NCBI GenBank assembly: GCA_963924555.1
Contig: OZ004582.1
Span: forward strand, 8,589,927-8,653,926
DNA: 64,000 nt
Source: Crambe crambe
Taxonomy: Eukaryota > Porifera > Demospongiae > Poecilosclerida > Crambeidae
Direction of reading: 5' to 3'
The translations under genes and the position numbers were made by a program. Positions 11,482-60,815 of the stretch are shown one piece after another (positions within the stretch are counted from its first letter, which is position 1; each line of letters begins with the position of its first letter). The notes beneath the pieces are model-generated. The model searched no databases. It saw nothing but the letters and a program-made list of their open reading frames with translations, and was not told the origin of the DNA.

Positions 11482-11530
11482 GGTCTTGCGACAGTTAGTG
11501 TGTTCAGTGGGTGTGTCATTTTTTCCATTA

Positions 11531-11540
11531 CGCATGCGCA
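11531..11540. promoter_or_regulatory. NRF-1-like palindrome CGCATGCGCA upstream of B2
   Basis: This is the counterpart of 5043-5052. It sits 50 bases upstream of the B2 start codon and at the left edge of the inserted DNA; a second, mutated copy (CGCACGCGCA) stays with C2 at 12537-12546. Confidence 0.5.
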
Positions 11541-11553
11541 TAGATATAAGAAA

Positions 11554-11680
11554 ATTCCTCCACGTTTGGCTTTTTCAGCTCTTCCACGCACCGAAAGACG
11601 GATTATACCACGCATGTTGTATTGTTGCTATGCCGTCTTTCGGTGCGTGGAAGAGCTGAAAAAGCCAAACGTGGAGGAAT
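11554..11680. repeat. Perfect 48-base inverted repeat, 31-base loop
   Basis: Bases 11554-11601 are the exact reverse complement of 11633-11680 (arms beginning ATTCCTCCACGTTTGG), with a loop at 11602-11632. The perfect arms imply recent formation or a foldback element. Confidence 0.9.
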
Positions 11681-12328: not shown

Positions 12329-12495
12329 ACAGGGGTTTTCAGGTTGGTTGACCAGTAGAATTTGCACATGTGCAAGATAAATTCAAGCGAGCATAATATA
12401 CTGTCATATAAATGCAATGATCTTAAATTTTATGAGCACGAATTTAATTCTGCACAGTCGGCAAATTTTGTGTCAACCAACCTGAAAACCCCTGT
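12329..12495. repeat. Inverted repeat with 24-base perfect arms, MITE-like
   Basis: Bases 12329-12352 (ACAGGGGTTTTCAGG...) are the reverse complement of 12472-12495, and the match continues imperfectly inward. A 14-base palindrome TTGCACATGTGCAA lies at 12362-12375. It looks like a small non-autonomous element of about 170 bases. Confidence 0.65.
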
Positions 12496-12577
12496 ACGTA
12501 GTCTATACAATCTATGGTGGGTGTGTCATTCAATTACGCACGCGCATAGATATATTTACATGTACACGTACGTCAAG

Positions 12578-15550: not shown

Positions 15551-15702
15551 CGATCAGGTATGGCTATTGTGTGCCTAGTAGGGGAGGGGGATCTCCCACG
15601 TATATAGGGATTTCCCCGTGCTATAACTTGCGTTAGTAAAAAACAATTTAATACAAAAATGAAAATAAATAGACCAAAGAAAAAAAAAAGGACTACTGAC
15701 TA

Positions 15703-24093: not shown

Positions 24094-24166
24094 TATTTTA
24101 CAGTCGTTCCGCGATCCGCAGATCCGCCAGATTCTGAATTCACGTGATCCCCAGAATTTTCAACAA

Positions 24167-24176
24167 CGCATGCGCA
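24167..24176. promoter_or_regulatory. NRF-1-like palindrome CGCATGCGCA upstream of transporter copy 1
   Basis: It sits 74 bases upstream of the start codon at 24093, followed by the same ATAGGAATT sequence and GTCATGTGAC motifs that follow the eIF3m upstream site. Confidence 0.5.
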
Positions 24177-24258
24177 ATAGGAATTACAGTCATGTGACAA
24201 AAAATTTACAGTCGTGTGACAAAATAATGTGACAGTGAATAAATAAGTATAAATCCTG

Positions 24259-27081: not shown

Positions 27082-28473
27082 ATGAAAGCTTCGTACAGCC
27101 AAAACCTATCATATATTATGATGGTCACGGTTGCTGCAGTGGTTATCGTTTTATACTTGTTCTCCAAGACTAATAGAACCGAAAGAAGGCCTGTCCCTAG
27201 CCTCATCCCAACTACTGCTGCTGGTGTAGAACATGTACTGATAGGTGTAAAGAAATTGACAAAGGTTTATAGTAAGTTTGGATATGTGATGGCTTCTAGC
27301 TATTCGGATCAGATGACAGGCTCTATGGCAAATGTGGTATCCTTGCAATGCTGGGCAGCCAGTCTAGGCACCGATGTTAGAGTCGTTGAACCTTTCTTGG
27401 TTCGGTCAATTCTGGGAGTGAATATGTACGCTACCTATAGAAATGCATCTGTTGAGGAGAACAATTCAGTGAAGTTAGGAGATATTTACGATCAGAATCA
27501 GTGGGAGAAAATTACAAAAGGAAAAGGGTATGCACCTCTCATTACCTGGAAACATTTTCTAGAACATTCACAGCGAAATTTGATTCTTGTCGGTCAGGAA
27601 TGCACTGGTAAAAGTGGTGTGAAGAAATGTTTCGATTGTGGCAGGGAATCTCGTGATTTTGCAAGGGATGGTGAAATGTTTGCAATGAAGTATGGTTTTC
27701 AAGTGGTGCGTAAAGTTTGTTATCCTCCTAAAGTTTTATCGGAAAGTAAATTTAAGAAGCTGATTTATGGCAAGTACAAACCCCATGAGGCAGCAGTCAT
27801 ATACAAACGTTGGGGTGGAGTGCTGAGAGGTGACTTTAAATGGCGTGTCGGAATAGCTGGTAAGCATGTCAATCGATGTAGTAGAGGAAGAAATTTCTTT
27901 GAGATGCCTGTTAGTCCAACAATTACTCAAGACAGTGCGAAATACATTCACAAGTACCTCCCAGAGTCTGATCCTAAGGGCTACATTAGCGTCATGTTAA
28001 GAATGGAGCATTTTGTCATAAATCGTGGAGGCTTCAGGGGAAAATCGAAAGACCAGATCTTATCGGCTATAATGCAGTGCTATAACAGCATAAGCAAAAA
28101 TGTGATAGAACTGAAGCAAAAATATAAAGTAAACTCTGTTTTTTTGACGATGGATTGTAGGAAACATGGGTCTCGGTACTTTAGTGAGAAGTTAAAGTCA
28201 CCTATTATGAAGATGGTGGCTGACAGTGTTCCCAAACTGTATCAGATGTTATATGGAAACTCTTCGACACTAGAGAAGTGGGACGAATCGTTTGATACGA
28301 CCGCCTCATCCACGACTCCAGGCTATGTAGCAATGTTACAGAAACACATGGCCGCGAAGGGAACCTGCCTCCTAACAGCAGGGGGTGGAGTTTTCCAGTC
28401 TTCTTCTCGTGGATTATACTCAAAGTACCATCCAAAGGGACCTAAATGTGTTTCTACAGTGAAATACTGTTGA
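27082..28473 (+). CDS. Type II membrane protein, glycosyltransferase-like (paralog 1), 463 aa
   Basis: A short cytosolic N-terminus is followed by a single hydrophobic anchor (MMVTVAAVVIVLYLF, residues about 13-30), a variable stem, and a luminal domain of about 380 residues: the topology of Golgi glycosyltransferases. Family motifs shared by the three paralogs are YSDQMTGSMANV, VVEPFLVRS, GYISVMLRMEH, VFLTMDCRKHGS and CLLTAGGG. The pattern of an N-terminal glycine-containing loop, a central hydrophobic-LR motif and a late VFLTMD motif recalls GT-B fucosyltransferases such as the POFUT group, but I cannot assign the family. Several cysteines (CFDCG, and KYC at the end) fit a secreted domain. 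Single exon. Confidence 0.75.
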   Translation: MKASYSQNLSYIMMVTVAAVVIVLYLFSKTNRTERRPVPSLIPTTAAGVEHVLIGVKKLTKVYSKFGYVMASSYSDQMTGSMANVVSLQCWAASLGTDVRVVEPFLVRSILGVNMYATYRNASVEENNSVKLGDIYDQNQWEKITKGKGYAPLITWKHFLEHSQRNLILVGQECTGKSGVKKCFDCGRESRDFARDGEMFAMKYGFQVVRKVCYPPKVLSESKFKKLIYGKYKPHEAAVIYKRWGGVLRGDFKWRVGIAGKHVNRCSRGRNFFEMPVSPTITQDSAKYIHKYLPESDPKGYISVMLRMEHFVINRGGFRGKSKDQILSAIMQCYNSISKNVIELKQKYKVNSVFLTMDCRKHGSRYFSEKLKSPIMKMVADSVPKLYQMLYGNSSTLEKWDESFDTTASSTTPGYVAMLQKHMAAKGTCLLTAGGGVFQSSSRGLYSKYHPKGPKCVSTVKYC

Positions 28474-31400
28474 GGGAGTAATTTCTGTTGGTATATACAT
28501 GATCCAGTCCTTTGCTTTTTAAATTATTAGTAAAATTTAAACATAGCAAACTGCTGGTAGTTTAAGGGTTCATTAAACATAGCAACCACTTGGTCACACA
28601 GAATGTAAGTGGTCACAAAAGAATGTATGTAATATTACTTTCCTGTAGCTAGTACACTAAGCCACATACAAATACCTAGGTGAACAAAATTACAGTAGAT
28701 AACAAGCTGTATCATGAATGTCATATGAATAGATAATAAAAGCTTCTGTACTCCAGCATACTCAAAGTCTAGCCCCTCCCCTTGGAAACATAATCTAAAA
28801 CCCATGGAATTCAGCAAATAAAGATTTGTCCTCTTTCTGTAGTAGTAGCTAAAGGACATTGAAAGAGGCAGGACTAAAATTAATAATGCACAAAAAGATG
28901 ACTGCTATAATTATAATCAGCTCTACATAATGGCTGACACTAATGGTATCTCAATGACAAAAGATACCTTTGTATAAGTAACCTGAGGACAACCTCTCTA
29001 CAAAGGAGTTCGTAATCATGCCTACATGTCCTTACATAATTATGCAGGGGCTGATCCAGAAATTTATAAGGGGGCCTTCATTGTGAATCTGATGATTGCA
29101 AGCGAGCATGAAAGAAAAAAAAATCTTTTAGAGGACAGGACCTTTACCAAATGTTAATTATTTTAGCTATTTATTTTGAATAACATAAGTTAGATCTAAT
29201 GCGTGTAATTTACTGGAGGTGGATTCCCCCCAGATGGTACTAAGCTATCATGGCCACTGGCTCTGGCTTGGTAATGAGCAAAATCCCTGGACAAATAGAC
29301 TAAATCCCTGGACCACTGGACATAATGAAGTGCCTCCAAGTGTACGTTTTTATGCATATTTATATGGAAAAATCATGAAAGTAGCTATGCTCAAAGTATG
29401 CAATATTGTTATATAGCTGGGCACTATGCTGAATCACCTGATAATCATGTGTTGCATAGCTACACCCATGTCCACAGTTCTGAATAAAAATTCTAGCTAG
29501 CTTTGATATGCAAGGTACACTAAAAATATGCAGATCTGGGTGTCTCAGTATTCATTTTTTTGGTTGGCTACTTGGAGGCTCTGCCAGTGTAAACTTTGAT
29601 TTCAGTATAAATTGTCTTAGAATTTTCAGCCAATGTGTATAGTGAATTTTCAGTATTTTTTGAAAATTCTTCAGTTTTGGTCAATTGATAAATCAGTATG
29701 GTTGGAGGCTCTGCTCTGAATAGCCAAATCCCTGGATAATTCAGGGAAATCTTGGATGGATATGCTACTCGACTGATAATGTCAGCTATGCATCATGTTG
29801 TGTGAGCTATAAGGGCGTATACAATCAGTGGACTGGACTACTGGACTGGACTACTGGACTGGACTACTGGACTGCCCTTTCACCCTGCACATGCGAAAAT
29901 TGTAGAAGTGTAGCTGCATACACTAGTAATTTGTCTACCACTAGAAGTGCATATCATCCTGCATACCTCTGAATGACACTTGTTGTCTTGCACAAAAAAT
30001 GGTAAGGCCATAGAATCATGAAGATAGCTATATGTTTGCTGCTTGTAAGAACTAGCATAAAATAATAAATTTGCTACTAGTTGGAAATTTTTAGTCAAGC
30101 TCTATACCCTCCCCTCCATTCCACTTCCCTCCCTCCAGTCCAGTGACACCCAGATACAGGTGGGTGTATGGTAGCTTTGAACCTGTATGTACTTCCTTGG
30201 ATAGTTTTGTTCGGGGAGGGAGGGAAGTGGAATAGAGGGGAGTGTAGAGTTTAACTAAATTTGAATAGCTTTTACAAGCTGCAAAGATACCTTCATCTTG
30301 TAGCTAGATTGTATGGCCTTACCATTTTTTGTGCAAGACAAGTGTCATTCAGAGCTACATATGCAGGATTCTAGTGATAAACAAATTACTAGTGCAGCTA
30401 TAATTACCAGTAATTACTGCAATTACTAATATTACATCTTCCCCAGTAATAGTTTGCACATGCTCAGATGTAGGAGTGCAATTATAAACTACTGCAATTA
30501 GCATGCAAACTGATGAGGGAAGATATAATATTAGTAATTGCAGTAATTACTGGTAGCTACACTAGTAATTTGTTTATCACTAGAAGTGCATATCATCCTG
30601 CATACCTCTGAATGACACTTGTTGTCTTGCACAAAAATGGTAATTAGGCCATACAATCTAGCTACTAGATGAACCCACCAATAAAAGGAAGGTAAAGGGT
30701 CGGCAACGCCAGACTAGGTATGCTCGGGCTTATCCAAACTCTACTCCCCTCCATTCCACTTCCCTCCCTCCCCATACAAAACTATCCTAGGAAGTACATA
30801 CCAGTTCAAAGCCACCATACACCAGTGACACCATCTGTATCTAGGTGTCTGAGCTGACTGGACCACTGGCTAGACCACTGGACTGGAGGGAGGGAAGTGA
30901 AATGGAGGGGAGGGTATAGAGAGTGACTAAAAATTTCCAACTATAGTAGCAAATTTATTTATTTTATGCTAGTTCTTACAAGCAGTATACCTTCATCTAC
31001 TAGATTCTATGGCCTAATTACCATTTTTTGTGCAAGTGTCATTCAGAGGTATGCAGGATGATATGCACTTTTCTAGTGGTAGACAAATTACTAGTGTACG
31101 CAGCTGCACTTTTATAATTTCACATGTGCAGGGTGAAAGGGCAGTCCAGTAGTCCAGTCCAGTAGTCCAGTCCACCGATTGTATACACCCGTGAGCTAAT
31201 GTGAGCTCAGCCTCACATTCTCTGAGTACCATTATGTACACCATCGTTAGGAAACACAACATGGCTGGCTTATTAGGAATTGAACACTGACATGAGTCAC
31301 ATGACACAGTAAAGGACAAAAAAGGGTTGGTGCTGCACACACTGTTCCACACACACACACAAAAAACTCTGAAAGGTGGTATAGTCTAGTCTCGCGTATG

Positions 31401-31691
31401 ACCATGGGTCATGGGCCGTACCATCCGTAGCAGTGTTGCAGTGCCTTCAGCCATGCAGTTATTGTGGTGAAGGCAGCTGTTTACTTCATGTGACTGGTAG
31501 CTATAGCAACCAGTAATATTTTTATGTACATAATTATACAGAGAATTTAGCAAATTGTGCAGGGATTTTACCAGGGTATCGTAGCCTGTACACCTGTGAG
31601 ATGTGACAATTAGTGATTCAAAGTGTGAAGGAATTTCATAGGTATTGATATATTGATAATTGATGGAGATGGTGAATTGTTATACAAGTCC
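28474..31691. other. Intergenic region dominated by a foldback element
   Basis: No gene seen. It holds the nested inverted-repeat element at 29813-31190; short ORFs here are chance products of the repeats. Confidence 0.6.
29813..31190. mobile_element. 1.4-kb nested foldback element
   Basis: The left end GGGCGTATACAATCAGTGG and right end CCACCGATTGTATACACCC are inverted copies, followed inward by tandem GGACTGGACTACT units. The arms extend for about 350 bases (29813 to about 30190, against about 30810 to 31190). Shorter copies of the same arm lie inside, around 30200-30400 in inverted and 30545-30680 in direct orientation, giving an A, A', A, A' layout. GTGAGCTA occurs at 29802-29809 and 31191-31198, a candidate 8-base target duplication (three bases intervene on the left). 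No transposase was found; a hAT-like non-autonomous element is possible. Confidence 0.7.
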
Positions 31692-33017
31692 TCAGCAATT
31701 TTCCACTTGAAAAACACATTTAGGTCCATTTGGATGGTACTCTGAGTATAATTCACGAGAGGAAGACTGGAACATACCACCCCCTGCTGTTAGGAGGCAA
31801 ATCCCCTTCGCAGCCATGTGTTTCTGTAACATTGCTACATAGCCTGGGGTCGTGAATGAGGCAGTTGTATCAAACGATTCATCCCACTTCTCTAGTGATG
31901 AAGAGCTTCCATATAACATCTGATACAATTGGGGAACACTGTCGGCCATCATCTTCATAAGCGGTGACACTGACTCACTGAAGTACTTTGACCCATGTTT
32001 CCTACAATCCATTGTCAAAAAAACAGAGTCTATTTCATACTTTTGTTTCAGTTCTGTCACTCTTTCTCCTATGCTGTTATAGCACTTCTTTATAGCCGAT
32101 GAGATCTGGTCTTTCGATTTTCCCCTGAAGCCTCCATGATTTATGACAAAATGCTCCATTCTTAACATGACACTAATGTAGCCCTTAGGATCAGACTCTG
32201 GGAGGTACTTGTGAATGTATTTCACACTGTCTTGAGTAATTGTTGGACTAACAGGCATCTCAAAGAAATTTCTTCCTCTAATACATTGATTAACAAGTCT
32301 ACCAGCTATTCCGACCCGATATTTGAAATCACCTCTCAGCACTCCACCCCAACGTTTGAATATGACAGCTGCCTCATGGGGTTTGTACCTGCCATAAATC
32401 AGCTTCTTAAAATCACCTTCCAATAAAACTTTAGGAGGATAGCAAACTTTACGCACCACTTGAAAACCATACTTCATTGCAAACATTTCACCATCCCTTG
32501 CAAAATCACGAGATTCCTTGCCACAATCGAAACATTTCTTCACGCCACTTTTACCAGTGCATTCCTGACCGACAAGAATCAAATTTCGTTGTGAATGTTC
32601 TAGAAAATGTTTCCATCTAATGAGAGGGGCATACCCTTTTCTTTTTGTCACTTTCTCCCACTGATTCTGATCGTAAATATCTCCCAACTTCACCGAATTG
32701 TTCTCCTCAACAGATGCATTTCTATAGGTAGCGTACATATTCACTCCCAGAATTGACCGAACCAAGAAAGGTTCAACAACTCCAACATCGGTGCTTAGAC
32801 TGGCTGCCCAGCATTGCAAAGATATCACATTTGCCACAGAACCGGTCATCTGATCAGAATAGCTAGAAGCCATCACATAGCCCGTGGTCGTAGCCTCAGG
32901 CCCTCTTTTAGATCTTGATGACCCATCAGTGCTGGATCTAACATAGAAGAAGATGATAACTGTAACGACTGAGACGTTCATTAAAAGAAGTAACTTCTGG
33001 CTCAATATATTTTCCAT
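31692..33017 (-). CDS. Type II membrane protein, glycosyltransferase-like (paralog 2), about 441 aa
   Basis: Start chosen at MENILSQKLLLLMN (33017), because the anchor follows at once (LLLLMNVSVVTVIIFFYV) and the frame further upstream has no convincing protein. The luminal domain is about 90 percent identical by eye to paralog 1, sharing YSDQMTGSVANV, VEPFLVRSILGV, GYISVMLRMEH, VFLTMDCRKHGS and CLLTAGGG. Differences concentrate in the stem after the anchor. The next gene upstream, paralog 3, is on the same strand, and its stop codon is only about 130 bases from this start. Confidence 0.75.
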   Translation of the reverse strand: MENILSQKLLLLMNVSVVTVIIFFYVRSSTDGSSRSKRGPEATTTGYVMASSYSDQMTGSVANVISLQCWAASLSTDVGVVEPFLVRSILGVNMYATYRNASVEENNSVKLGDIYDQNQWEKVTKRKGYAPLIRWKHFLEHSQRNLILVGQECTGKSGVKKCFDCGKESRDFARDGEMFAMKYGFQVVRKVCYPPKVLLEGDFKKLIYGRYKPHEAAVIFKRWGGVLRGDFKYRVGIAGRLVNQCIRGRNFFEMPVSPTITQDSVKYIHKYLPESDPKGYISVMLRMEHFVINHGGFRGKSKDQISSAIKKCYNSIGERVTELKQKYEIDSVFLTMDCRKHGSKYFSESVSPLMKMMADSVPQLYQMLYGSSSSLEKWDESFDTTASFTTPGYVAMLQKHMAAKGICLLTAGGGMFQSSSRELYSEYHPNGPKCVFQVENC

Positions 33018-33145
33018 TTTTCTGAGCCAGTCTCGTAGCCTCGTTCCCAGGACTTCACTGGTATGTAGCCAGTCTCTCACGAAGAAAAAGGTAAAGTATC
33101 GCGCGTACGTGTAGCTAATGAGCCACGCCCCCAATTATTAAAGTA

Positions 33146-34540
33146 TCAGCAATTGTTTACTGTAGAAACACATTTGGGTCCCTTTGGATGATACTTTGAG
33201 TATAATCCATGAGAAGAAGACTGGAAAATCCCACCCCCTGCTGTTAGGAGGCAGGTTCCCTTCGCAGCCATGTGTTTCTGTAACATTGCTACATAGCCTG
33301 GAGTCGTGAATGAGGCAGTTGTATCAAACGATTCATCCCATTTTCCCAGTGTCGAAGAGTTTCCATATAACATCTGATACAGTTCAGAAACAGTATCGGC
33401 TACAGATTTATAGAGTGGCGTCCGTCTTCCTTCACTAAAACCATTCGACCCTTGTTTCCTGCAGTCCAGGGTCAGAAAAACAGCATCAATGCCATACAGC
33501 TTTTTCAATTCATTTACTTTCCTTTGTATGTTTTTATAACACTTCATTAAAGTTGACAACACTTGTTCTTTAGACGGTGCTTTTTTGACAAGGTTATGTT
33601 TGATAATAAAATGCTCAGTCCTTATCATGACACTGATATAACCCTTGCTGCTAGCATTGGGGAGGTATTTTCGATTGTACTTCAAACTATCTTGAATAAC
33701 CGTTGAACTAACAGGCATCTCGATGAAATTGCTACCTCTGAAACATCGATTGACACGACTTCCTGATATACCCACACGCCACTTGAGGTCACTAGTATGC
33801 ACCCCTCCCCAAATACTGAATATGACTGCTACCTCAAGGGGGTCATAATCACCGTAAATTAGTCTTTTGAATCGTTGTTCTGACAAAACTGATGGAGGAT
33901 ATCCTATGGTTCGTACAATCTGAAAACCATGCTTCTTTGCAAATATCTCACCATCCCTTGTGAATTTACGATAACGCTGACTGCACTTTATAACTCTCCT
34001 TGAACCTTCTTTGCCAATGCATTCTTGACCGACAAGAATCAGCTTTCGCTGAGCGTTTTCAAGGAAGTATTTCCAACTAACGAAAGGGGCATACCCTCTT
34101 CTTCTTGTAACTTTCTCCCACTTCTCTCGATCGTAGATATCACTCAACTTTACTGAATTATTTTCCTCAACCGATGTATTTCCATTGTAAGTAGCAGCAT
34201 ACATGTTCACTCCTAGAAGAGAGCGAACCAAGAAAGGTTCGACCACTCTAACATCAGTGCCTAAAGTACCTGCCCAGCATTGGAAAGATATCACATTTGC
34301 CATAGATCCTGTCATCTGATCACCATAGGTTACAGCCATCACATATCCAAAATCATTAGAGTTTGAGTAATTTCTCTTGGGATGAAATTCATTGTGCATG
34401 TGATTCACCCATGGTTTTGTCTGTGGTAGCCTTGGCACAGTCTTCTTTGCCTTAGGAAGCAAGTAGAGAATGGTCAAAATCGTTAAAACTGCGACTATGA
34501 TTAGCAACTTCTGGAACCATGGACCTAGTTTTCCACCCAT
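33146..34540 (-). CDS. Type II membrane protein, glycosyltransferase-like (paralog 3), about 464 aa
   Basis: Start chosen at MGGKLGPWFQKLLIIVAVL (34540), where the membrane anchor begins; the open frame up to 34693 overlaps the divergent gene. The body is clearly more diverged from paralogs 1 and 2 (for example YDPLEVAVIFSIWGGVHTSD), but the last 75 residues, from YQMLYGNSS onward, are almost the same as paralog 1, including silent positions, which suggests gene conversion. Conserved motifs are YGDQMTGSMANV, VEPFLVRS, GYISVMIRTEH, VFLTLDCRKQGS and CLLTAGGG. It is divergent from the gene at 34611 with 70 bases between starts. Confidence 0.78.
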   Translation of the reverse strand: MGGKLGPWFQKLLIIVAVLTILTILYLLPKAKKTVPRLPQTKPWVNHMHNEFHPKRNYSNSNDFGYVMAVTYGDQMTGSMANVISFQCWAGTLGTDVRVVEPFLVRSLLGVNMYAATYNGNTSVEENNSVKLSDIYDREKWEKVTRRRGYAPFVSWKYFLENAQRKLILVGQECIGKEGSRRVIKCSQRYRKFTRDGEIFAKKHGFQIVRTIGYPPSVLSEQRFKRLIYGDYDPLEVAVIFSIWGGVHTSDLKWRVGISGSRVNRCFRGSNFIEMPVSSTVIQDSLKYNRKYLPNASSKGYISVMIRTEHFIIKHNLVKKAPSKEQVLSTLMKCYKNIQRKVNELKKLYGIDAVFLTLDCRKQGSNGFSEGRRTPLYKSVADTVSELYQMLYGNSSTLGKWDESFDTTASFTTPGYVAMLQKHMAAKGTCLLTAGGGIFQSSSHGLYSKYHPKGPKCVSTVNNC

Positions 34541-34564
34541 GCATATAGGGGCGTTTTCTACCTG

Positions 34565-34575
34565 TGCGCATGCGT
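34565..34575. promoter_or_regulatory. NRF-1-like motif TGCGCATGCGT in a 70-base bidirectional promoter
   Basis: Lies between the divergent start codons at 34540 and 34611. Confidence 0.5.
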
Positions 34576-34610
34576 CTAATTTATTTTGGAGTTCAAAGGT
34601 CAAGATAATC

Positions 34611-35968
34611 ATGTCTGCAGTGAAAATCAAGAAGGTCGGCTCGAGACAACTCTTCAACCTTCCCCTATACGAGCACCATCTGGTGATCGACACGAGACCT
34701 CTCTCTGCCTACCAGGAAGGGCATATAGCTACGGCTGTGTCTTTTCCTGCTCTGCCTCTGGAAGTGCAAGAAGTGGAGAGGGTGAAGAAATTGATTGAAT
34801 TCATCAAATCCTACATCAAAGAGTACTTGAGGTATTTCCTACCCTCTAATGATAAGGCCATTGAGTCACTTCAGTATAAATCTGGAGTGTCTGGAATACC
34901 AGTTTAGTCTGGCGGCGCCGACCCTTTACCTAGGGTCGGCGCAGCCAGACTATGCTTATGGACAGAGCTAGGGGTGGATAAAGGGTATTGTATTACAGCA
35001 TTTAACGGACATATATGTCCTCCAACTTTGAGGTTAGCAGTTTCAGATTTTGTTATTATTTAAAGATGCTATCATCAGTCTGTGTATCGATTCACTGACA
35101 CCCTTCTCTTCTTTCTTTATTTCCTCCCTTTAGACCAGAGAACCCCAGTCCTATAGTGATCTATGGCAACAAAGAACCAGAGAGCCAATATCATGGAGAA
35201 TGGCTGATCCAGAAACTGGAACAACTTCACAAAGATCGAAGAGTATTATCCCCACTCGGTAGCAACACTGAAGAGTTTGAGAAACAAATTGAGGATTATA
35301 CAGAAAAGATTAACTATTTTGAGCAGTTTTGTAACACTGTTGCCGATTATACCGTTGAGATTTGGATGCTGGAGTGTTCCTATGAGGAGTTTCGGGATCA
35401 GTATGACTTTCTGTGTGGACATGTGGAATTTTCTTGCATGTATCCAGTTCCACATCAGATAACTGATAATCTCTTCTTGGGTTCTCGGGTCTTTCCACTG
35501 ACTCAACAATGTCTTTCACAATTGCGTATCAGTCACATGATAGTATCGGACAGGCAAGAACTTGATTGGTCAGAATTGAAGGGCATATCAGTGTTGAAAT
35601 GTGGTGTTGAGGATTCTAATTCACAGGACATGAGTAAATGCTGGGAAGCTTGCTGTACATTCATTGATCAAGCGTTATGTAATATTGAAGGTGAAATATC
35701 CTCTGATACTGTAGCCAGAATAGGTGATGCCTCTTCACCTGATGTGAATAAAGAAACTAGATCTGCTAGAATATTAGTCATTCTCTTTGGACGTTCACGA
35801 TCAACGTCTGTGATTCTTGCCCACATGATCAAAACTTACAAAATGACTTTAGAAAATGCATGGGATTTTGTTCGTGAGGGTTGCTGGCATCTGATTGACA
35901 GATCTCTTATTTATGAGGAGCAATTATATGAATGGCAAAAAAGACACTTGCTCAAAATAATACTATGA
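34611..35968 (+). CDS. STYXL1-like protein: rhodanese domain plus inactive dual-specificity phosphatase domain
   Basis: Two exons, 34611-34831 and 35134-35968 (GT-AG, phase 2), give 351 residues. The N-terminal half has a rhodanese/CH2 fold (LVIDTRPLSAYQEGHIATAV). The C-terminal half is a DUSP domain: PHQITDNLFLGS is the usual start of DUSPs, and ILVILFGRSRSTSVILAHMIK occupies the signature-loop position. The catalytic His-Cys of HCxxGxxRS is replaced by Ile-Leu, so phosphatase activity should be absent while the SRS phosphate-binding residues remain. STYXL1 (MK-STYX) is a known pseudophosphatase with this rhodanese-DUSP architecture; its partners in stress-granule and mitochondrial apoptosis pathways are known in vertebrates only. 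Confidence 0.82.
34907..34950. repeat. Hairpin repeat in the STYXL1-like intron
   Basis: GTCTGGCGGCGCCGACCCT (34907-34925) and AGGGTCGGCGCAGCCAGAC (34932-34950) are inverted with one mismatch around a 6-base loop. The core GGTAAAGGGTC recurs in either orientation near 27052, 30688, 36018, 46541 and 48711. Confidence 0.8.
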
Positions 35969-52055: not shown

Positions 52056-52421
52056 TTAACGGTGTGCTTCTATATTACAATCCTCTGTTCCAACTTCAAT
52101 AGCACTTTTAAATTTTTCCTTCATCATACCCACACTATCCGACTTGTACCAGGTTGTGCCTCCTTTCCAAGTACGATAAATATTCAAATGCTTTAGCTTT
52201 TCATGACATTTCCTCTCTTTCTCTAGCATTACTTTGGTCTTTGTATGGCAGATGATTTTTAACAATCTGGGGTTACCATTTTGAAGTTCTGCAATGCTTT
52301 CCCTCAGATGATCAGCTGTTCCTATTCTGTAAAAATTTGTTGGAGTGTTATTAACCACATCATATTCTTGTGTGAGGAATATGTAAGCTTTACCCTCCTC
52401 TTCATCGAATTCACAAGCCAT
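52056..52421 (-). CDS. Small T5orf172/GIY-YIG-like protein, 121 aa
   Basis: A single-exon frame starting MACEFDEEEGKAYIFLTQ. The order YIFL, YRIGTADHLRESIAELQNGNP, a basic helix with ERKCHEKLKHL, and TWYKSD matches the T5orf172/MUG113 branch of the GIY-YIG superfamily, where YI[F/Y]L and [YK]xIG form the core and a LQxGNP helix follows. The protein is this domain alone; no other domain or signal peptide is seen. The catalytic status is unclear because the classic GIY-YIG residues are only partly kept. It is divergent from the gene at 52568 with 146 bases and two palindromic CGCATGCG elements between. Confidence 0.65.
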   Translation of the reverse strand: MACEFDEEEGKAYIFLTQEYDVVNNTPTNFYRIGTADHLRESIAELQNGNPRLLKIICHTKTKVMLEKERKCHEKLKHLNIYRTWKGGTTWYKSDSVGMMKEKFKSAIEVGTEDCNIEAHR

Positions 52422-52488: not shown

Positions 52489-52567
52489 TAAATTAAAGGA
52501 AGCCACACCCCTTTCATTTTGCGCAGATCGATCGGCGCTCGCTATAGGAATCTAAAGCTACATCATC

Positions 52568-53692
52568 ATGTCGGTAGAAGGTAGCCCTACGGATCCTAAA
52601 AGAATTGAAGGTCGCAGCGAAGACAACCGGCCAAGAGAATTCTTCTGGGACAGCATCACTATTTATATATTTGGAGTGATCCTAGCGTTGGCTGGTCTTG
52701 ATGCTCTCACCGAGTTCATTCGGGGCAGCAGTATAGCCTGTATAGTGAGTGGACAGGATGTAACAGCTGAATTCATCAATGGATACTGTTCTGGAAGCCT
52801 TTCATCATCTCAATTCTTCCCTGCCTTTATCGTTGTCCATGGCATCCTAATTGCTCTACCACATTACTTATGGTCCAATCACTATGGAGGCAATTTTGAG
52901 TACTTTTTCTCACAAGTCCGTGAAATGGACCGAATCAGGAGTGAAGAAACTGGACAATTCTCCAAGAAAAACTACATAATCGTGGAGCAGCTTCGACAGG
53001 TCTTTACCACCTACAAGCAGAACTGGATGTTCATCCTCTACGTTCTCAAACTGATTCTCCAACTTGTCATAACCCTGATCGGTTTCTTCACAGCTATTTT
53101 TTTCTTTACTGATTTTAATGTTGTCTTTCGTTGCCCACAAAACTTTGACAATGCTACTCAAGGGTTAACAGATCCCTTGTGGCCTTTAGACCATCAAGTT
53201 ACCTGCGTATTCACCTCAATGAGACTCTTTGAGACCATCCGAATTGCTGATCTGATTTTGCTTGCTCTCCTCATCTTCTGTTTCATCTGGTCCCTCGTGT
53301 GGTGTGGAAGTACCCATCCCACTGAATTGGGCACGAATCACGTCGCCTCCTTCTGTTTTGAGTCAGCAATGTCTCCAGTTCACTACATCCCTAAATTCCC
53401 CCTGATATTTTGCTCTCACAATCTCAAAAGACTCTTTCGTGCCTTGTTCACCAGTATCCCATTTTGTGGGTCGGGACCACACATTGCAACTAATCTGGAT
53501 TTTCTGGTTTTGCGGCTATTTCGAACAGACAGTGGACAGGGTTTCATCTTCCGTGAGATGCAGGTTCTACACATGATCAAACAGTACAATAACGATGATC
53601 AAAGAAGAGCCAATTTGCACAGGGTGCAGCAAAAGTTGAAGAAAATGGAAGATGGAGGTAAGTTAAATTGTAACTGCAGAGAACATACCTAA
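52568..53692 (+). CDS. Four-transmembrane innexin/pannexin/LRRC8-like channel protein
   Basis: The frame gives 374 residues. Hydrophobic segments lie at about 28-48, 82-102, 152-181 and 224-246. The two putative extracellular loops each carry two cysteines (C58 and C74; C189 and C213), the innexin/pannexin pattern; LRRC8 loops carry more. FFPAFIVVHGILIALPHYLW resembles the second-helix entry of pannexins and LRRC8, and the segment from LDFLVLRLF to MQVLHMIKQYN resembles their post-TM4 region. No leucine-rich repeats follow. A strong donor (GGAG then GTAAGT at about 53660) suggests a further exon, so the true C-terminus may differ. Likely a plasma-membrane large-pore channel subunit (inference). 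Confidence 0.7.
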   Translation: MSVEGSPTDPKRIEGRSEDNRPREFFWDSITIYIFGVILALAGLDALTEFIRGSSIACIVSGQDVTAEFINGYCSGSLSSSQFFPAFIVVHGILIALPHYLWSNHYGGNFEYFFSQVREMDRIRSEETGQFSKKNYIIVEQLRQVFTTYKQNWMFILYVLKLILQLVITLIGFFTAIFFFTDFNVVFRCPQNFDNATQGLTDPLWPLDHQVTCVFTSMRLFETIRIADLILLALLIFCFIWSLVWCGSTHPTELGTNHVASFCFESAMSPVHYIPKFPLIFCSHNLKRLFRALFTSIPFCGSGPHIATNLDFLVLRLFRTDSGQGFIFREMQVLHMIKQYNNDDQRRANLHRVQQKLKKMEDGGKLNCNCREHT

Positions 53693-56126
53693 CAGTGTTC
53701 CCAAATGATAGAATAAAAAGGCAAGCTTATAGATTTCTACAGTATATTTTGTGTCATTGTTGATTGTTAGGCTATAGGCTTAGGTGCTTTGTGGCAGCTT
53801 CTATGTAGCTATGCAGCAGCCTGCCACTTATATAACTCAACTCATACTTCAGTATAACAAAGGTTCTTTCCAGAACTAGAGTGGAACTCCTCGATATGAC
53901 CAAATTAATAGCCACCTTGCATGAACTTGCAATTCATCCTTGAAATGAGCACATCATGTATCTTAATTGCTTCCACACATTAGAGCTTCAAAAAGTGTCC
54001 ACATTTCAGCAGTTCCACTCTAGTATTATATGAATAGAGCTATCTGAGCTGCATGGCCACTGTGGATAATAGCTACATATTACACCTTCCCATCTTGCTG
54101 TCTGTAATCATTTTGAAGAAACTCCCCCTCCTCCTCTGCCCGTATATAGCAGCACGGCGTAATTAACTGGCTACATACCATATCACAGTTCAAGTATCAC
54201 TATACAGAGAGATCTAGAAATATAAGACCATTTGAATGTGTGCGATAAATGAGTGTGGTACGTGGTGTTTTGTCTAGTGCGAGTTCGAACATCTTAGGTT
54301 TGTGTGTAACTGAGAATAGCTTTTTTTGATTAAAAGCTTCAATTCATCCGGCATCATGTAACATTTGCGGGTCGGGTAGATGTATTAGACATCTCATAAG
54401 AGTTCCTTTAATGGAGTATATCAACGATTTAGCTACATGGATACAATATTATGTAAGTACAGCTAAAGGGATTTAGTATGGCTGCAATATATAGAGTGAC
54501 TAGAGTACCTCTGCACTGACAAAGAATCTAGATTGTCATTAAGCTACTGTTGTATTATAGCTAGCCAGTATCCACATGCAGATAAGACTGGAGACAGCTA
54601 CAATACACGTACAGTATATAGCTGGCAAACATTCTGGGGCCTTAGATTATCATGTATATAATTGTAGCTAATATCCTTGGCTTTATCATTGAAGATTAGA
54701 GCTTCCAATAAAGCAGTTTATCTGTGTGGCTGTAACTAAAGAACATTTGCACTCATTTTAATTTTATCTTTCGCCTATGGAGAAAGAATCTTTCTATGAA
54801 GCAACAAATTTATCACTCTCATTCTAGTCTCTCTGTTATTCAGCATGCCCTCTTTGGTCCATGAATGCATAATCATGCAACCTTTTACATTTGTTGTACA
54901 CTGATGAGGAACTTAGAAGAGTGATAAATTGCAAGCCGCATTCAGCAAACGTGTGATCTGACAAATGAAGATATCATGTACTGAATACCAACTGAAGAGT
55001 TGAGAACAGCAAAACTGATGTCTTACAGCATGCACTATAACTACCTAGCCATAGGAATGAGACCTATTCAACATGTAGGGAAGTAGACATACGTATAATC
55101 TATAAATGAAATTCGTCTATTAGCTGTCAGGATCAGTGCAATTTAGACTGACTTTTGAAATAAAGACACCTTTCTAATCAGGCCAGTCCCAAATAGTGAG
55201 GATGTTCAGCTATTGATTTGTGAGTATTAAGCTATTACACTGTATGCTGTTTATCTGAAGGAGTGTTTGAAGGAATGGGTTAAAGATCTATAGCAATTGG
55301 TATAAATAAATCACCAAGCATATAAATTAATTGACCCATCAAATAATAATACCATGTATTGTGTCGAGGTAATTACTTGACTCCATTTAGTTGCTTTCAG
55401 GCTATTTTCTTTTCCTGAGCTTTATGGAAAGTCATATCTCTTCATCATCATCTCTATACCCCTTAAGGGTGGTTTACCCGGCAACTTGGCAGAATAGCAT
55501 AATACAAATGCCAAGGAGCTTATAAAAATGGTTGCTATCGCTATTTGTTGTCATAGACAGCATTCAGTCTTGGTAATTGTATTGTTAGCTAATGTGCATG
55601 TCACTATGGCTACTGCTAATTGTTTGACCATGACTTTCGTTGCTCCTAGCCAGACTTGTATCATAAACACGCCATTTATATACAAGCCATTGGACTTTCA
55701 TGTGAAGTGAAAGCTCCATAAGGAAACTATGATGATCTTCTGGCATGTAGCTATACGTGGAAATAATGTACAGTGGATTCAGGAATGGGGAGATGGTGAT
55801 CTCTTTGGGGAGCTGGAATAGGTGCTGCTATTTTGACATCGGGTGGTGGTAGAAAGGTGGTCTTGTCTGGTCTGGATGAGTAATTTTGCTTTTGGGCACC
55901 CCTAGAAATGTACTTCAATCTAGTCAAACCTGAACAGTGTCCAGGAGAAGTATAATAGAAGTGACATGATGCTCATTTGAGTCCAGAATACATTAGATTA
56001 ATATCAATTCATGCATGTTTACCAACTTGCTAATCATTATCATTAGCTACTCATAACCGACACATGAAATAACTTTCCCGAATAAGGCTATCTATAGACC
56101 TCGTCTTCAAGCTTCTTTTATTAAAT
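53693..56126. other. 2.4-kb region with no recognisable exon
   Basis: Scattered short ORFs only. A stretch near 55930-55955 (AACAGTGTCCAGGAGAAGTA) is repeated near 61358, upstream of the second TRIM copy, showing that the TRIM duplication includes 5' flank. Confidence 0.5.
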
Positions 56127-58232
56127 ATGGCTGAGGATACCATCAAGGAACTTGAGGAACAGCTCAAATGTGCCATCTGTCTGGACACCTATACTGACCC
56201 TAAGCTTCTCCAGTGCTTCCATATCTACTGCAGGCAATGCCTTGTGAAACTCGTGGTCAGAGACCAGCAGGGACAATTCATCCTGACTTGCCCAACCTGT
56301 CGTCAGGCCACATCTGTTTCAGCCAATGGAGTGGCAGGCCTCCAGTCAGCATTTCAAGTCAACCACCTCTTAGAGATCTTGGAAAAGCACAAGAAGGCTA
56401 AAGATACAGCAGCCAGTCAGGAGAGGGCAGAGAGTGTCAGGACACAAACCATTCCATCAAAGAAGGTCAATGTCAACTGTTTAGAACACACAGACAAAGA
56501 ACGAGAGCTTTACTGTGAAACATGTAGTGATCTGATTTGTATAAAATGTGCCATTAAAGGAGGCAAGCATCAAATTCACGATCACTATTTGTTGGATGAG
56601 GCATTTGAGAGGTACAAGGAAGAGATTTCACCATCACTTGAGCCACTGGAGGGGAAACTGGTGGCTGTCAAGGAAGCACTGGCACAGTTGGATAAGCGTT
56701 GTGGGAAGATATCCAACCACCGAGTAGCCATTGAAGCCAACATACACAACACCATTGGGCGACTCCACAAAATCCTTGATGTTAGGAAGACCGAGCTTAT
56801 CAGCCAGCTACATAAAATGACACAAAGAAAGTTGAAAGACCTTGCCATTCAGAGGGACAAGATGGAGACCATCCTGGCACAGCTGAGCAGCTGTCTGGAC
56901 TTTGTCGGGGAAAGCTTGAAGACGGGGAATCAGGGAGAAGTGCTGATGATGAAGACAAATATAGTGAACCAAGTGAAGGAACTGACCTCACCTTTCCAAC
57001 CAGGTATACTTGAGCCTAGTGAAGAAGCTGACATGGAGTTTTCAGTTTTGCAAGATCTTATTGCCAAGTGTCAGAACTATGGACAAATACTCTCATCAGG
57101 GTCACCCGATCTATCGAAATGCCAGGCCGCAGGTAAAGGTTTGGAGGAAGCAGTGGTTGGAGAGAAGTCTACTGGTGTTGTGGAAGCTGTTAACCTTGAG
57201 GGCAAGTCGTGCGTGAAGTCGATCAGTTCGTTGCAGTGTGAGCTTGTGTCTTTGATAACAGGTGCCACTGAGAGAGGCAATGTTGAACATAAAGGACAGA
57301 ACCGATACGAGATCAGTTACTGCCCCACCATCAAGGGGAAGCACCAGCTACACATCAAAGTTGAGGACACACACATCAGAGGAAGTCCATTTAGTGTAAG
57401 GGTGAAGTTGCCAGTCAAGAAGTTAGGCACTCCTATCCTGACAATTGATGTTGTGAATAGACCAAGGGGAGTGGTAATCAACCAGAGGGAGGAGGTGGTG
57501 GTTACGGAGTATGATTGTGTTTCAGTGTTTAGTCCCAGTGGTAAGAAGCTTCAATCATTTGGCTCTCGTGGTTCTGGTCAAGGACGGTTAAAGTTCCCTT
57601 GGGGAGTGGCAGTGGATGGTGAGGGTAATATCTTTGTGGTAGATAATGACGATCATTGCATACAGAAATTCACAGCAAGTGGTCAGTTCCTCTGTGCAGT
57701 GGGTACACAAGGTAAAGGACCTCTGCAGTTCCATCACCCTATATACATTGCATTCAATACTACTAATAATAAGATATATGTCACGGATAATGTAAATGTT
57801 CGTGTTCAAGTTCTGAACTCTGACCTTACATTCTCAAACACCTTTGGGAGGAAAGGCAATGGCAGTGGTCAGTTTCGTGGCATACGTGGTATAGCCTGTG
57901 ACAACACCGGGAATGTGTATGTGGTTGATGGTGACAACCATCGTATCCAAGTCTTCACAGCTGATGGGAAGTTTTCGAGGATGTTTGGTTGTGGTAGATG
58001 GGAACTCAGGGATCCTTGTGGCATTGCTATTGACAGTAATGATGTTGTGTATGTCAGTGAGTTTAGTAATGATCGTGTTTCCATGTTCACCTCCAAGGGT
58101 CAATTCATATCATCATTTGGCGTAGAGGGGGTGGATCCAGGAGAGTTTAAGTCTCCCTGGGGTGTGGCAGTGGATAGCTGTGGAGTGGTGTATGTGTGTG
58201 ACACTCTTAATAACCGTATTCAAGTGTTTTAA
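56127..58232 (+). CDS. TRIM-NHL protein (TRIM2/3/71 type), 701 aa, single exon, intact
   Basis: RING finger C3HC4 at C15, C18, C30, H32, C35, C38, C55 and C58. A B-box 2 starts at C118 (CLEH, CETC, CIKC and HxxxH spacing), followed by a helical coiled-coil region (about 160-320), a filamin-type immunoglobulin repeat (about 340-425, ending HIRGSPFSVRV), and six NHL repeats (about 440-701), each with a GVAVD..G.I.V.D..N.R.Q.F pattern. The family acts as RING-type E3 ubiquitin ligases and, for some members, RNA-binding regulators through the NHL propeller. The absence of introns next to intron-rich genes suggests an origin by retrocopy or an intronless lineage (inference). A decayed tandem copy starts at 62503. 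Confidence 0.92.
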   Translation: MAEDTIKELEEQLKCAICLDTYTDPKLLQCFHIYCRQCLVKLVVRDQQGQFILTCPTCRQATSVSANGVAGLQSAFQVNHLLEILEKHKKAKDTAASQERAESVRTQTIPSKKVNVNCLEHTDKERELYCETCSDLICIKCAIKGGKHQIHDHYLLDEAFERYKEEISPSLEPLEGKLVAVKEALAQLDKRCGKISNHRVAIEANIHNTIGRLHKILDVRKTELISQLHKMTQRKLKDLAIQRDKMETILAQLSSCLDFVGESLKTGNQGEVLMMKTNIVNQVKELTSPFQPGILEPSEEADMEFSVLQDLIAKCQNYGQILSSGSPDLSKCQAAGKGLEEAVVGEKSTGVVEAVNLEGKSCVKSISSLQCELVSLITGATERGNVEHKGQNRYEISYCPTIKGKHQLHIKVEDTHIRGSPFSVRVKLPVKKLGTPILTIDVVNRPRGVVINQREEVVVTEYDCVSVFSPSGKKLQSFGSRGSGQGRLKFPWGVAVDGEGNIFVVDNDDHCIQKFTASGQFLCAVGTQGKGPLQFHHPIYIAFNTTNNKIYVTDNVNVRVQVLNSDLTFSNTFGRKGNGSGQFRGIRGIACDNTGNVYVVDGDNHRIQVFTADGKFSRMFGCGRWELRDPCGIAIDSNDVVYVSEFSNDRVSMFTSKGQFISSFGVEGVDPGEFKSPWGVAVDSCGVVYVCDTLNNRIQVF

Positions 58233-58593
58233 TTACTTTTATACTATTTATATCATCTGCTGCTCTTTGGGAATTTGTGTGTTGTGAGGAAGTATGTATG
58301 TATTGTATTACATCAACTCATAGTTACATAGATAGCTACCTTAGTTTTTAAATCAAATTTATGATTAAAACTTTGAAAATTGATCAGTATAGCATGGTAG
58401 CTTGAATGTATCAAACTCCACGAGAATTAACAACTGGCCATCACATTCTCACTTAGCTATCATTTACATCAAAAAATTTAAAACGTTGAAATGGAATGAA
58501 AAAAAAAAAAAGATCCTTACCAGTGAGAGATGTCACTTATAGTAATTGCATTGGTAATCTACTGTACTACAAAATGTCATTCATTATTTGTAG

Positions 58594-60815
58594 ATGTCAT
58601 AACAAGTTTCAATGTGCAAGGACACCATCAGGACCTGGGCTGGAACTTCACCAAAGAAGCTGGCGTTAAAGGAGTCTATGACACAAGTATAGCACCTTTA
58701 AAGTCCAATGAAACACTAGTAAGTCTTTTGTAATGTATTGTAGTTGAGCATTAACATCATACATCCTATCTTAGGTAGTTACCATGGCAATGGTAGCTAC
58801 ATATATAGCTAACTACTATTGGTGCACACCTTGTCTACTACTAAACTCTGCACTGAAATTGCCACCATCAGTGTAGTAAAGATATTACTCCATAGCTACC
58901 AGTCTTCATGCTATTACTATGGAGTTTGAGCATAAATGGAGGAAATTAGCTAGTTTGGTTGATAATGAAATACTCTGTGTTCTGTTTCTAACTCCATTAG
59001 AATGGCATGAATAGCGACTGAAAAAAATTCTACTTGAAATGGGACCACTAGCTATTTCCCAAAATGCATTGTTAGCTATGTAACGATTTTTTAAAAGGTT
59101 CTTCCTGATTCTCTGAGAGGTGTCATTTTGGGTTTTTCCTCACTCACCGCTGTCCACAAACGTGCTGTCTTTGTCACTTTTGGTTCTACGTCCCTCGGCA
59201 TTCCAAGTGCTCTCACTAGAGTTTTTACAAAGGTGATTATTTCAGCATTTTCTAGGCATACCATATAGTTACCTAAACCAGGATTTCAAAAAGAGTATCA
59301 GTGTGTGGGCGTCTTTATTTCAGGGGTGAAATGCTAGTAATATGGGGCACAATCAAAGTCTCCCGAACCAATTATCAGATTCAGGGGATCCATGCACATC
59401 GAGCCTCAAGGGGTTTTCCACTAATAATCTACTTTTGCCTTCTCCAGGTGGGTGTGCTGAACTTTAACCCCCACTTCACTCAGAAAGGCGACAATGATTA
59501 CTTCTTTCGACCAACATTTTACTGCTCGGATATAATAGAACTCGACTTCCCTGAGGATATTCTGGCAGCTGAACATGCTGCCTCTAATGATGTATGAATA
59601 TTAATTTGGCTACTTACCTCCTTAATGTATAAGATAATAATTAGCTATGAGATTTCTTTTATAATTTAGTTTCCGACTGGCCTTGAGAAGCTATTTACAT
59701 CAAAAGTTAGCACAATTGATTATATGGTCATTGGACCTGTTGAAAACTCCCTTCATTTATCAACTGGTGAGTATCTATAGCAACGGATTAATTTTAGCTG
59801 AATAATAAGAGTGGTGTCTCATTGGAAAACAAATCCTCTTGAACATGAGGACAGTTCTCCAGACCAACCTTATCACTTATCATTAGAACCTTTTTTCCCC
59901 CTTTTCATCCATAAAAATGGAAAAGCAGCCAGCAAGACTAACTCTACACTGACTACACACTAACAGTAGCTACATCATGTATGTTAGCCAGCTTTTTTAA
60001 TTCAACCTTTCTCCTTATCCATAGTCTCAATGTCCCTAATGAAGATGGTTTCTGACAGGTTCACAAGTGATAGTGTCCTTCTCACCGTGTATCCAAAGGA
60101 AGTGTCGGCTAAAAACACCGGTGGAGAGTTCCACCGCTACACCCCTCCAAAGAAATAGTAAGTCAAGATTCATTATTGAATTTATATAGTGTGGATTGGA
60201 TTATAGATGGTAGTTAAACACATTGCGATTGTTTGGATTGAGATAAGCATTTTGGTAGTTCTATATAGTTCTATATAGCTACTGTCCCCAAAATGCCTGA
60301 AGCTCTGTGCATTTCCAGGGCAGAATACAGTGGAACCTCCGAGTAAGGGACACTTTGGGATCAGTCACTTTATCCTTTGTAGAGAGGTTGTCCTTTCTCA
60401 GAGGTTAAAAATGTACTGGAAAGGGGCCCAAAAGAGCGTTCTCTGTCTGGAGATCGTTCTTTTCTTAGAGGGTCCTTTATCGGAGGGTTCCACTGTATAC
60501 CATCTTTCATTTTTTTATAGTTTTCAGTCATATGCCCAGACGGTCAGCCTGTCTGCCTCAGAACAGAAATGGCCTCCGAAGAAAGAGAACAGTGATACGA
60601 CCAGTTCCCCACCCGTGAAGCGTGACCACTTTGAATTCAACCTCTCTTGCGGGGAGTCGGAGGGCGTATTTGAGTTCCAACTCTTCAAGTACGTTGATCC
60701 TTCCTCCCAGCCACAGCAGGAGAGGCCTCCAGAGGTGGAGATAGGATCAGCAGAGCCAATGCCTGATAAAAACACCTCCACTGGTCATCAAGTGGTGGAC
60801 ATTCCAGCTGTCTGA
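58594..60815 (+). CDS. Unrecognised six-exon gene
   Basis: Six exons join in phase: 58594-58718, 59098-59232, 59448-59591, 59670-59766, 60025-60157 and 60521-60815. They encode about 309 residues ending VVDIPAV. An ATG at 58530 is in frame with the first exon (MSLIVIALVIYCTTKCHSLF, which could be a signal peptide or translated intron), so the true 5' end is uncertain. Visible segments are ILGFSSLTAVHKRAVFVTFG, YFFRPTFYCSDIIELDFPED and SMSLMKMVSDRFTSD; the end is Ser/Pro/Lys-rich and low-complexity. No transmembrane segment or catalytic motif is evident. The first acceptor is phase 1, matching the unpaired donor of the channel gene at about 53660, so the two could be one gene with the TRIM gene nested in its intron; this is untested. 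Confidence 0.6.
60328..60495. mobile_element. MITE with CAGTGGAACC termini in the last intron of the 58594 gene
   Basis: The left end CAGTGGAACCTCC and right end GGAGGGTTCCACTG are inverted; TA lies on both sides. The body shares ACACTTTGGGATCAG and GGAAAGGGGCCCAAAAG with 61091-61260 and 50779-50904. It ends 25 bases before the exon 6 acceptor, so it abuts the splice-site tract. Confidence 0.75.

What the first reader, a model, noticed from the sequence alone, without database searches (positions are those of the whole stretch)
52568..53692. Innexin/pannexin/LRRC8-type four-TM protein in a sponge-like genome
Four transmembrane segments, two cysteines in each putative extracellular loop, and pannexin/LRRC8-like sequence around TM2 and after TM4, with no leucine-rich repeats attached. 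Sponges are generally described as lacking innexins and gap junctions, so a pannexin-like protein with the 2+2 cysteine pattern would bear on the origin of large-pore channels.
Basis: partly seen in the sequence, partly recalled or inferred. Interest (0 to 1): 0.7.

Follow-up and report, generated by a model that had tools for sequence, protein, structure and literature searches.

The report
Pannexin-like channel family in a sponge
A sponge genome carries a family of genes related to the pannexin and innexin membrane channels, which sponges are usually said to lack, and in this family the channel part is joined to an inner domain that matched no catalogued family searched here.

Summary
The ORF 52568-53692 is exon 1 of a predicted seven-exon gene ending at 60815 (672 aa), with a TRIM-NHL ORF inside intron 1. 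Exon 1 encodes four hydrophobic segments and 2+2 extracellular cysteines, invariant in 7 of 7 aligned family members. Homology to the innexin/pannexin superfamily is supported: Pfam Innexin E 3.4e-6, over cut-off; family profile against wild-type PANX1 E 9e-7 and INX-6 E 9e-6, well above shuffled controls. LRRC8A is marginal; connexin 26 gives nothing. No leucine-rich repeats follow; instead there is a conserved ~230-residue domain without a Pfam or PDB relative. Innexin's YYQW motif is absent, so it is neither an innexin proper nor an LRRC8. Most likely it is a non-junctional large-pore channel subunit regulated by its cytosolic domain: homology shown, function inferred. Passages seen in five papers report no innexins/pannexins in sponges. 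Expression, assembly, presence in other sponges and deep placement were not testable here.

The parts
52568..53657 (+). exon 1: N-terminus, four TM segments, both extracellular loops, first cytosolic part (363 codons + 1 base, phase 1)
   Evidence: ORF; donor GAG|GTAAGT at 53658; nucleotide similarity to paralogue L015 runs from window 52565 to 53664, i.e. from the ATG to just past the donor; dN/dS 0.107 against L015
52655..52711 (+). TM1 (residues 30-48)
   Evidence: hydropathy
52739..52789 (+). extracellular loop 1 between cysteines C58 and C74
   Evidence: both invariant in 7 of 7 aligned members
52814..52870 (+). TM2 (residues 83-101), inside the Pfam Innexin match (residues 82-187)
53051..53107 (+). 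TM3 (residues 162-180)
53132..53206 (+). extracellular loop 2 from C189 to C213, with N-glycosylation sequon N195-A-T (codon at 53150)
53243..53299 (+). TM4 (residues 226-244)
58594..58718 (+). exon 2
   Evidence: tblastx match to L015, 58% over 45 residues; GT-AG and phase fit
59098..59232 (+). exon 3, start of the conserved C-terminal domain
   Evidence: 79% identity to L015 over 48 residues, 40% to L016 over 50; GT-AG, phase 0
59448..59591 (+). exon 4
   Evidence: 64% identity to L015 over 50 residues; GT-AG
59670..59766 (+). exon 5
   Evidence: matches L015, L016 and L019; GT-AG
60025..60157 (+). exon 6
   Evidence: 74% identity to L015 over 46 residues; also matches L019; GT-AG
60521..60815 (+). 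exon 7 with stop codon TGA
   Evidence: matches L015 exons 7 and 8; frame closes with one stop, 672 aa in all
56127..58232 (+). not part of the channel: uninterrupted 701-aa TRIM-NHL ORF (RING, B-box, filamin, NHL) nested in intron 1 (53658-58593)
   Evidence: Pfam NHL 5.9e-31, Filamin 1.7e-14, RING 2.3e-8, B-box 2.4e-5; L015 intron 1 is only 305 bases

Best explanation
The gene encodes a subunit of a large-pore membrane channel of the innexin/pannexin superfamily, from a family with eight loci in the demosponge Crambe crambe. Four membrane helices form the pore subunit. Two cysteines in each extracellular loop make a pannexin-type disulphide-stapled outer cap. Several subunits assemble around a wide pore. 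Because each of the seven aligned members carries an N-glycosylation sequon in an extracellular loop, and sponges are reported to have no gap junctions, the channel most likely works unpaired in a single membrane, passing ions and small metabolites such as ATP. The conserved ~230-residue cytosolic domain after TM4 most likely takes the regulatory place that the leucine-rich repeats have in LRRC8 and the C-terminal tail has in pannexin 1 (both recalled). Shown: gene structure by paralogue comparison, family, remote homology, cysteines, purifying selection. Inferred: topology, oligomer, pore, glycosylation, non-junctional state, the domain's role.
For: Pfam Innexin 3.3e-6 for the window protein and 25.0 bits (the cut-off) for L015; at E<=10, 5 of 6 members scanned match Innexin and 2 of 6 Pannexin_like. 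All 27 distinct PDB sequences matched at E<=10 by the six-member profile are pannexins, best 2e-4. hhalign of the seven-member profile: wild-type PANX1 E 9.2e-7 (probability 91%) over 225 columns from TM1 to TM4, score 53.0 against a shuffle maximum of 25.8 of 150; INX-6 E 8.6e-6 (83%), 47.1 against 27.2; Cx26 19.0, reached by 18 of 150 shuffles. Four loop cysteines invariant in 7 of 7. dN/dS 0.107 in exon 1 and 0.151 in the downstream exons. Gene model: six GT-AG introns, consistent phases, first six exon borders shared with L015. C-terminal domain conserved in four subfamilies, 25-67% identity to the window copy. Extracellular sequons in 7 of 7.
Against: Homology is remote. The single-sequence PDB match is weak (frog pannexin 0.006), and L017 and L019 alone find no channel of this kind in the PDB; L016 has no Pfam match at E<=1. 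Against a frog pannexin fragment lacking TM1 and loop 1 the profile scores only 32.2 (27%) with a shuffle maximum of 31.0, so the PANX1 signal leans on TM1-loop 1-TM2; a profile of the window, L015 and L016 alone reaches PANX1 at E 2.9e-4 (40%, no shuffles run). Sequons are common in these loops by composition (shuffle product over five groups 0.033), and 2 of 7 members also have one in the predicted cytosolic loop. Seven glycosite-bearing innexins are reported to form gap junctions (PMC8769644). The single-sequence structure model is poor (pLDDT 48.6); its best PDB match is pannexin 1 but at E 0.6. Hydropathy gives exactly four peaks in 3 of 7 members. No expression or channel data.
Confidence: 0.6

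Rival explanations
1. A volume-regulated anion channel of LRRC8 descent that lost or never gained leucine-rich repeats.
For: Pfam Pannexin_like TM region of LRRC8 matches L017 (2.6e-5, 23.9 bits, cut-off 25) and L018 (3.6e-5, 23.4 bits). The stretch after TM4 in L019 (TPRIKNDLDFLLMRLF) resembles LRRC8A (IPDVKNDFAFMLHLID) by eye. LRRC8A's score of 28.9 was reached by 0 of 150 shuffles.
Against: hhalign to LRRC8A only E 0.0046 (8%), shuffle maximum 28.1, and only over TM1-TM2. No LRRC8 among the 27 PDB matches. PF12534 did not match the window protein and rang nowhere in the genome search, though that search also rang in no control genome. No leucine-rich repeats.
Confidence: 0.15
2. Sponge gap-junction proteins: paired channels between cells, overlooked because of divergence.
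For: Homology to innexins and a multigene family, as in animals with innexin gap junctions.
Against: Extracellular sequons in 7 of 7 members; [quoted passage not shown] the innexin YYQW motif at TM2 is absent.
Confidence: 0.1
3. An unrelated four-TM protein with chance resemblance to pannexins.
For: Single-sequence matches are weak or absent.
Against: Block shuffles never approach the PANX1 and INX-6 scores (0 of 150 each); connexin 26 gives no signal; two Pfam models of one superfamily match different paralogues.
Confidence: 0.06
4. Exon 1 is a stand-alone 374-aa single-exon gene and the downstream exons belong to another gene or to a decayed copy.
For: Exon 1 ORF has its own stop at 53692; a 4.9-kb stretch with a TRIM-NHL ORF separates it from exon 2; dS differs between the two parts (0.63 and 1.60).
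Against: Similarity to L015 stops at the consensus donor; exons 2-7 join in frame with six GT-AG introns and match the L015 gene, whose intron 1 is 305 bases; dN/dS 0.151 downstream.
Confidence: 0.1

Closest known systems
Pannexins (PANX1, PANX2, PANX3)
   Same: four TM segments, 2+2 loop cysteines, extracellular sequons, best profile match, over TM1-TM4; L017-L020 share R-D-Q-[AN] in loop 1 with PANX2
   Different: 23% aligned identity to PANX1; more distant from pannexins than INX-6 is by the same single-sequence program (0.006 against 1.7e-6); a conserved domain after TM4 that pannexins are not known to have (recalled)
Innexins (C. elegans INX-6)
   Same: Pfam Innexin match over cut-off, over TM2-TM3; loop-1 pattern C-x2-P ... 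[YF]-[VI]-N-x-[YF]-C in L017-L020 as in INX-6
   Different: no YYQW motif at TM2; profile match limited to TM1-TM2; gap-junction function unshown
LRRC8 (VRAC subunits)
   Same: channel part followed by a large cytosolic domain; weak Pfam Pannexin_like match in two paralogues
   Different: no leucine-rich repeats; profile match marginal
Connexins
   Same: same overall membrane plan only (recalled)
   Different: no sequence signal for connexin 26: 18 of 150 shuffles reach the observed score

Membership tests
innexin/pannexin superfamily (Pfam PF00876) | profile match over the curated cut-off | tested here: met
   window 27 bits against 25, L015 25.0; L017 16.1, L018 15.0, L019 21.0 and L020 15.4 are below, L016 has no match at E<=1
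innexin/pannexin superfamily (Pfam PF00876) | four TM segments | tested here: met
   window protein: four hydropathy peaks; at the same threshold exactly four in 3 of 7 members, five windows in 3, three in 1
innexin/pannexin superfamily (Pfam PF00876) | two cysteines in each extracellular loop | tested here: met
   7 of 7 members
innexin proper | YYQW motif at TM2 (motif recalled; present in INX-6) | tested here: not met
   window has SSSQFFPAF, L019 NEYYSIF at that place
innexin proper | forms gap junctions | not testable with these tools
   needs cell pairs or microscopy
pannexin proper | clades with vertebrate pannexins in a tree | not tested
   too few reference sequences at hand for a deep tree
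pannexin proper | N-glycosylation site in an extracellular loop | tested here: met
   sequon in 7 of 7, at differing positions; occupancy not testable
LRRC8 | C-terminal leucine-rich repeats | tested here: not met
   no Pfam match at E<=10 in the rebuilt C-terminal regions of the window gene and L015
LRRC8 | Pannexin_like TM region over cut-off (PF12534) | tested here: not met
   no match in the window protein; L017 23.9 and L018 23.4 bits against 25
connexin | sequence similarity | tested here: not met
   connexin 26 only: hhalign E 0.079, 18 of 150 shuffles reach it
CALHM | Pfam Ca_hom_mod match | tested here: inconclusive
   no hit in the genome, but the search rang in no control either; no CALHM match in the Pfam scan of the window protein at E<=10

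The most novel reading that the evidence does not exclude
The sponge family is the missing early branch of the innexin/pannexin/LRRC8 superfamily: a non-junctional channel with its own cytosolic sensor domain that predates the use of these proteins in gap junctions, so sponges never lost innexins but kept an ancestral-type relative.
Probability: 0.3. Interest if true: 0.85.

Novelty: new variant of a known kind. Interest (0 to 1): 0.68.

Why it matters
Papers on gap-junction evolution report innexins/pannexins as absent or not found in sponges (passages seen: PMC9949713, PMC8769644, PMC6391747, PMC10280926, PMC4685580), and PMC6391747 infers basal absence or loss from that. A divergent family in a chromosome-scale demosponge assembly would change that inference and offer a testable channel for nerveless signalling such as ATP release. 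The C-terminal domain would be a further kind of regulatory module on this channel fold.

Tried and rejected
LRRC8 with repeats further downstream: rejected, the downstream exons carry no leucine-rich repeat by Pfam. Identity of the C-terminal domain: Pfam, NCBIfam and PDB by sequence gave nothing convincing (best PDB profile E 0.24, a riboflavin kinase). By single-sequence search the domain was found only at the channel loci, apart from one weak unfollowed match at C9:3432766 (E 0.2, 25% identity). Silicatein as a sponge marker: an active-site motif was printed for 14 of the 20 cathepsin loci fetched (of 35 matches), and none looked like silicatein; 6 of 20 printed none. Relatives in bacterial/archaeal and viral contigs: none (12 and 20 pattern matches, none confirmed). 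Structure: single-sequence AlphaFold2 was poor and Foldseek uninformative. The first PANX1 comparison used a mutant chain (8gtt, RDQ in loop 1) that flattered the match (E 3.3e-8); it was replaced by the wild-type sequence. No deep tree was built: too few verified references.

Full report
What was checked. The ORF 52568-53692 exists as described. Its Pfam scan at E<=10 gives Innexin at E 3.3e-6, 27 bits against a curated cut-off of 25, over residues 82-187 (TM2 to TM3), and otherwise only DUF412 below its cut-off. Hydropathy gives four segments, and the two loops predicted outside carry two cysteines each.

Which organism. The window lies on contig C3 of a 143.14-Mb genome in 119 contigs. Nine contig lengths seen (9.566, 9.684, 9.494, 8.844, 7.656, 7.569, 7.245, 6.799 and 5.671 Mb) all match chromosomes 1, 2, 3, 6, 8, 10, 12, 14 and 18 of the Crambe crambe assembly (143.20 Mb in 124 scaffolds, so not letter-identical in total; Demospongiae, Poecilosclerida; PMC12166358, abstract and passages seen). 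The window is therefore on chromosome 2 of this sponge, by inference from lengths. A silicatein marker was looked for and not seen.

The family. A search of the genome with the ORF finds 12 matches in eight loci: five on C3 (window; L015, 88% identical; L016; the pair L017/L018), one on C9 (L019), two on C1 (L020, L021). A search with L019 finds the same eight loci and no other at E<=10. L020 and L021 are 96% identical across exon 1, and length differences between them break the frame once in each. In the seven-sequence alignment (L021 left out, L020 in part) the four loop cysteines are invariant. dN/dS is 0.107 between the window gene and L015 in exon 1, and 0.104 between L017 and L018 in exon 1.

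The gene is larger than the ORF. Nucleotide similarity to L015 runs from window 52565 to 53664, that is from the ATG to just past a consensus donor (GAG|GTAAGT at 53658). Conserved coding blocks from the other loci match the window again at 58.6-60.7 kb. With GT-AG borders they join in frame into seven exons and one stop at 60815, 672 residues in all. L015 shares the first six exon borders and phases and divides the last exon in two. The downstream exons evolve under constraint (dN/dS 0.151), but their dS (1.60) is far above that of exon 1 (0.63); gene conversion of exon 1 would explain this but was not tested. Intron 1 is 4936 bases in the window copy and 305 in L015; in the window it holds an uninterrupted 701-aa TRIM-NHL ORF on the same strand.

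The C-terminal domain. After TM4 and a linker comes a region of about 230 residues conserved in the four subfamilies compared, 25-67% identical to the window copy (three of the five rows are hand-joined exon blocks). It has no Pfam match at E<=10 for the window gene and L015, only a stray zinc-finger match at 0.24 in one of five members, no NCBIfam match, no single-sequence PDB match and a best profile match of 0.24. By single-sequence search of this genome it was found only at the channel loci, apart from one weak unfollowed match.

Relationship of the channel part. At E<=10, five of six members match Pfam Innexin and two match Pannexin_like of LRRC8; L016 matches nothing at E<=1. A six-member profile finds 27 distinct PDB sequences at E<=10, all pannexins, best 2e-4. 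hhalign of the seven-member profile gives: wild-type PANX1 score 53.0, E 9.2e-7, probability 91%, 225 columns from TM1 to TM4, best of 150 block shuffles 25.8; INX-6 47.1, E 8.6e-6, 83%, shuffle maximum 27.2; LRRC8A 28.9, E 0.0046, 8%, shuffle maximum 28.1; Cx26 19.0, reached by 18 of 150 shuffles. A profile of only the window, L015 and L016 reaches PANX1 at E 2.9e-4, 40%, over 79 columns, without a shuffle control. Against the reading: a frog pannexin fragment without TM1 and loop 1 scores 32.2 (27%) with a shuffle maximum of 31.0, so the PANX1 signal leans on the first half. For scale, in single-sequence PDB searches INX-6 finds a pannexin at 1.7e-6, a PANX1 query with the mutant loop finds INX-6 at 2.3e-5 and LRRC8D at 0.32, the window protein finds a frog pannexin at 0.006, and L017 and L019 find none. 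The sponge family is thus more distant from pannexins than INX-6 is.

How it probably works. The shared loop cysteines and four segments argue for the pannexin/innexin subunit plan and hence an oligomeric wide pore (inference). Each of the seven aligned members has at least one N-glycosylation sequon in an extracellular loop, at differing places; composition shuffles give a joint chance of 0.033 over five groups, and 2 of 7 members also have a sequon in the predicted cytosolic loop, so this is suggestive only. Glycosylation there is reported to hinder gap-junction formation by pannexins, though seven innexins with such sites are reported to form gap junctions (PMC8769644, passages). With the report that no gap junctions are known in any sponge (PMC10280926, passage), a single-membrane channel is the likeliest state. 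The C-terminal domain is placed where LRRC8 and pannexin 1 carry regulatory parts (recalled), so gating by it is the simplest guess.

What is in print. Passages seen report innexins or pannexins as absent from or not found in sponges: PMC6391747, PMC9949713, PMC8769644, PMC10280926, PMC4685580. Seven searches listed 20 of 63, 10 of 10 (16), 3 of 3 (26), 23 of 23 (53), 15 of 828 (57), 7 of 7 (85) and 15 of 20 papers (86); among those listed none, from title, abstract start or the passages opened, reports a pannexin-like family in sponges. Preprints and most subscription journals are not held, so prior report elsewhere is possible.

Limits. No RNA evidence, no other sponge genome, no deep tree. 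The only structure model is poor (pLDDT 48.6, pTM 0.29), and its best Foldseek hit, Xenopus pannexin 1, has E 0.6, which is not evidence.

Noticed in passing
window 56127-58232: Uninterrupted TRIM-NHL ORF nested in intron 1 of the channel gene on the same strand; an 85% identical TRIM start (318 aligned residues) lies about 3.1 kb beyond exon 1 of L017, and broken pieces of one beside L018.
   Followed up: partly
window 557-17598: Cluster of AIG1/IIGP-type GTPase ORFs on both strands, one of 631 aa with two AIG1 stretches; three of them tested in Pfam (AIG1 3e-17, 8.8e-16, 1.6e-24).
   Followed up: partly
window 52568-60815 against L015: dS is 0.63 in exon 1 but 1.60 in the downstream exons of the same gene pair, as if exon 1 had been homogenised.
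   Followed up: no
L020 and L021, exon 1: Neighbouring inverted copies, 96% identical in exon 1, each with one frame break in exon 1; the assembly's stated quality value is 58.1, which makes decay likelier than sequencing error.
   Followed up: partly
window 27082-34693: Three ORFs of 463-515 aa that look alike; the one tested has no Pfam match at E<=1e-5.
   Followed up: no
window 21292-27001: Two near-identical copies of a sugar-transporter gene in tandem; one ORF tested (Pfam Sugar_tr 7.7e-40).
   Followed up: no
window 52056-52421 (-): 121-aa ORF, divergent from the channel gene with 146 bases between the two start codons; no Pfam match at E<=0.01.
   Followed up: no
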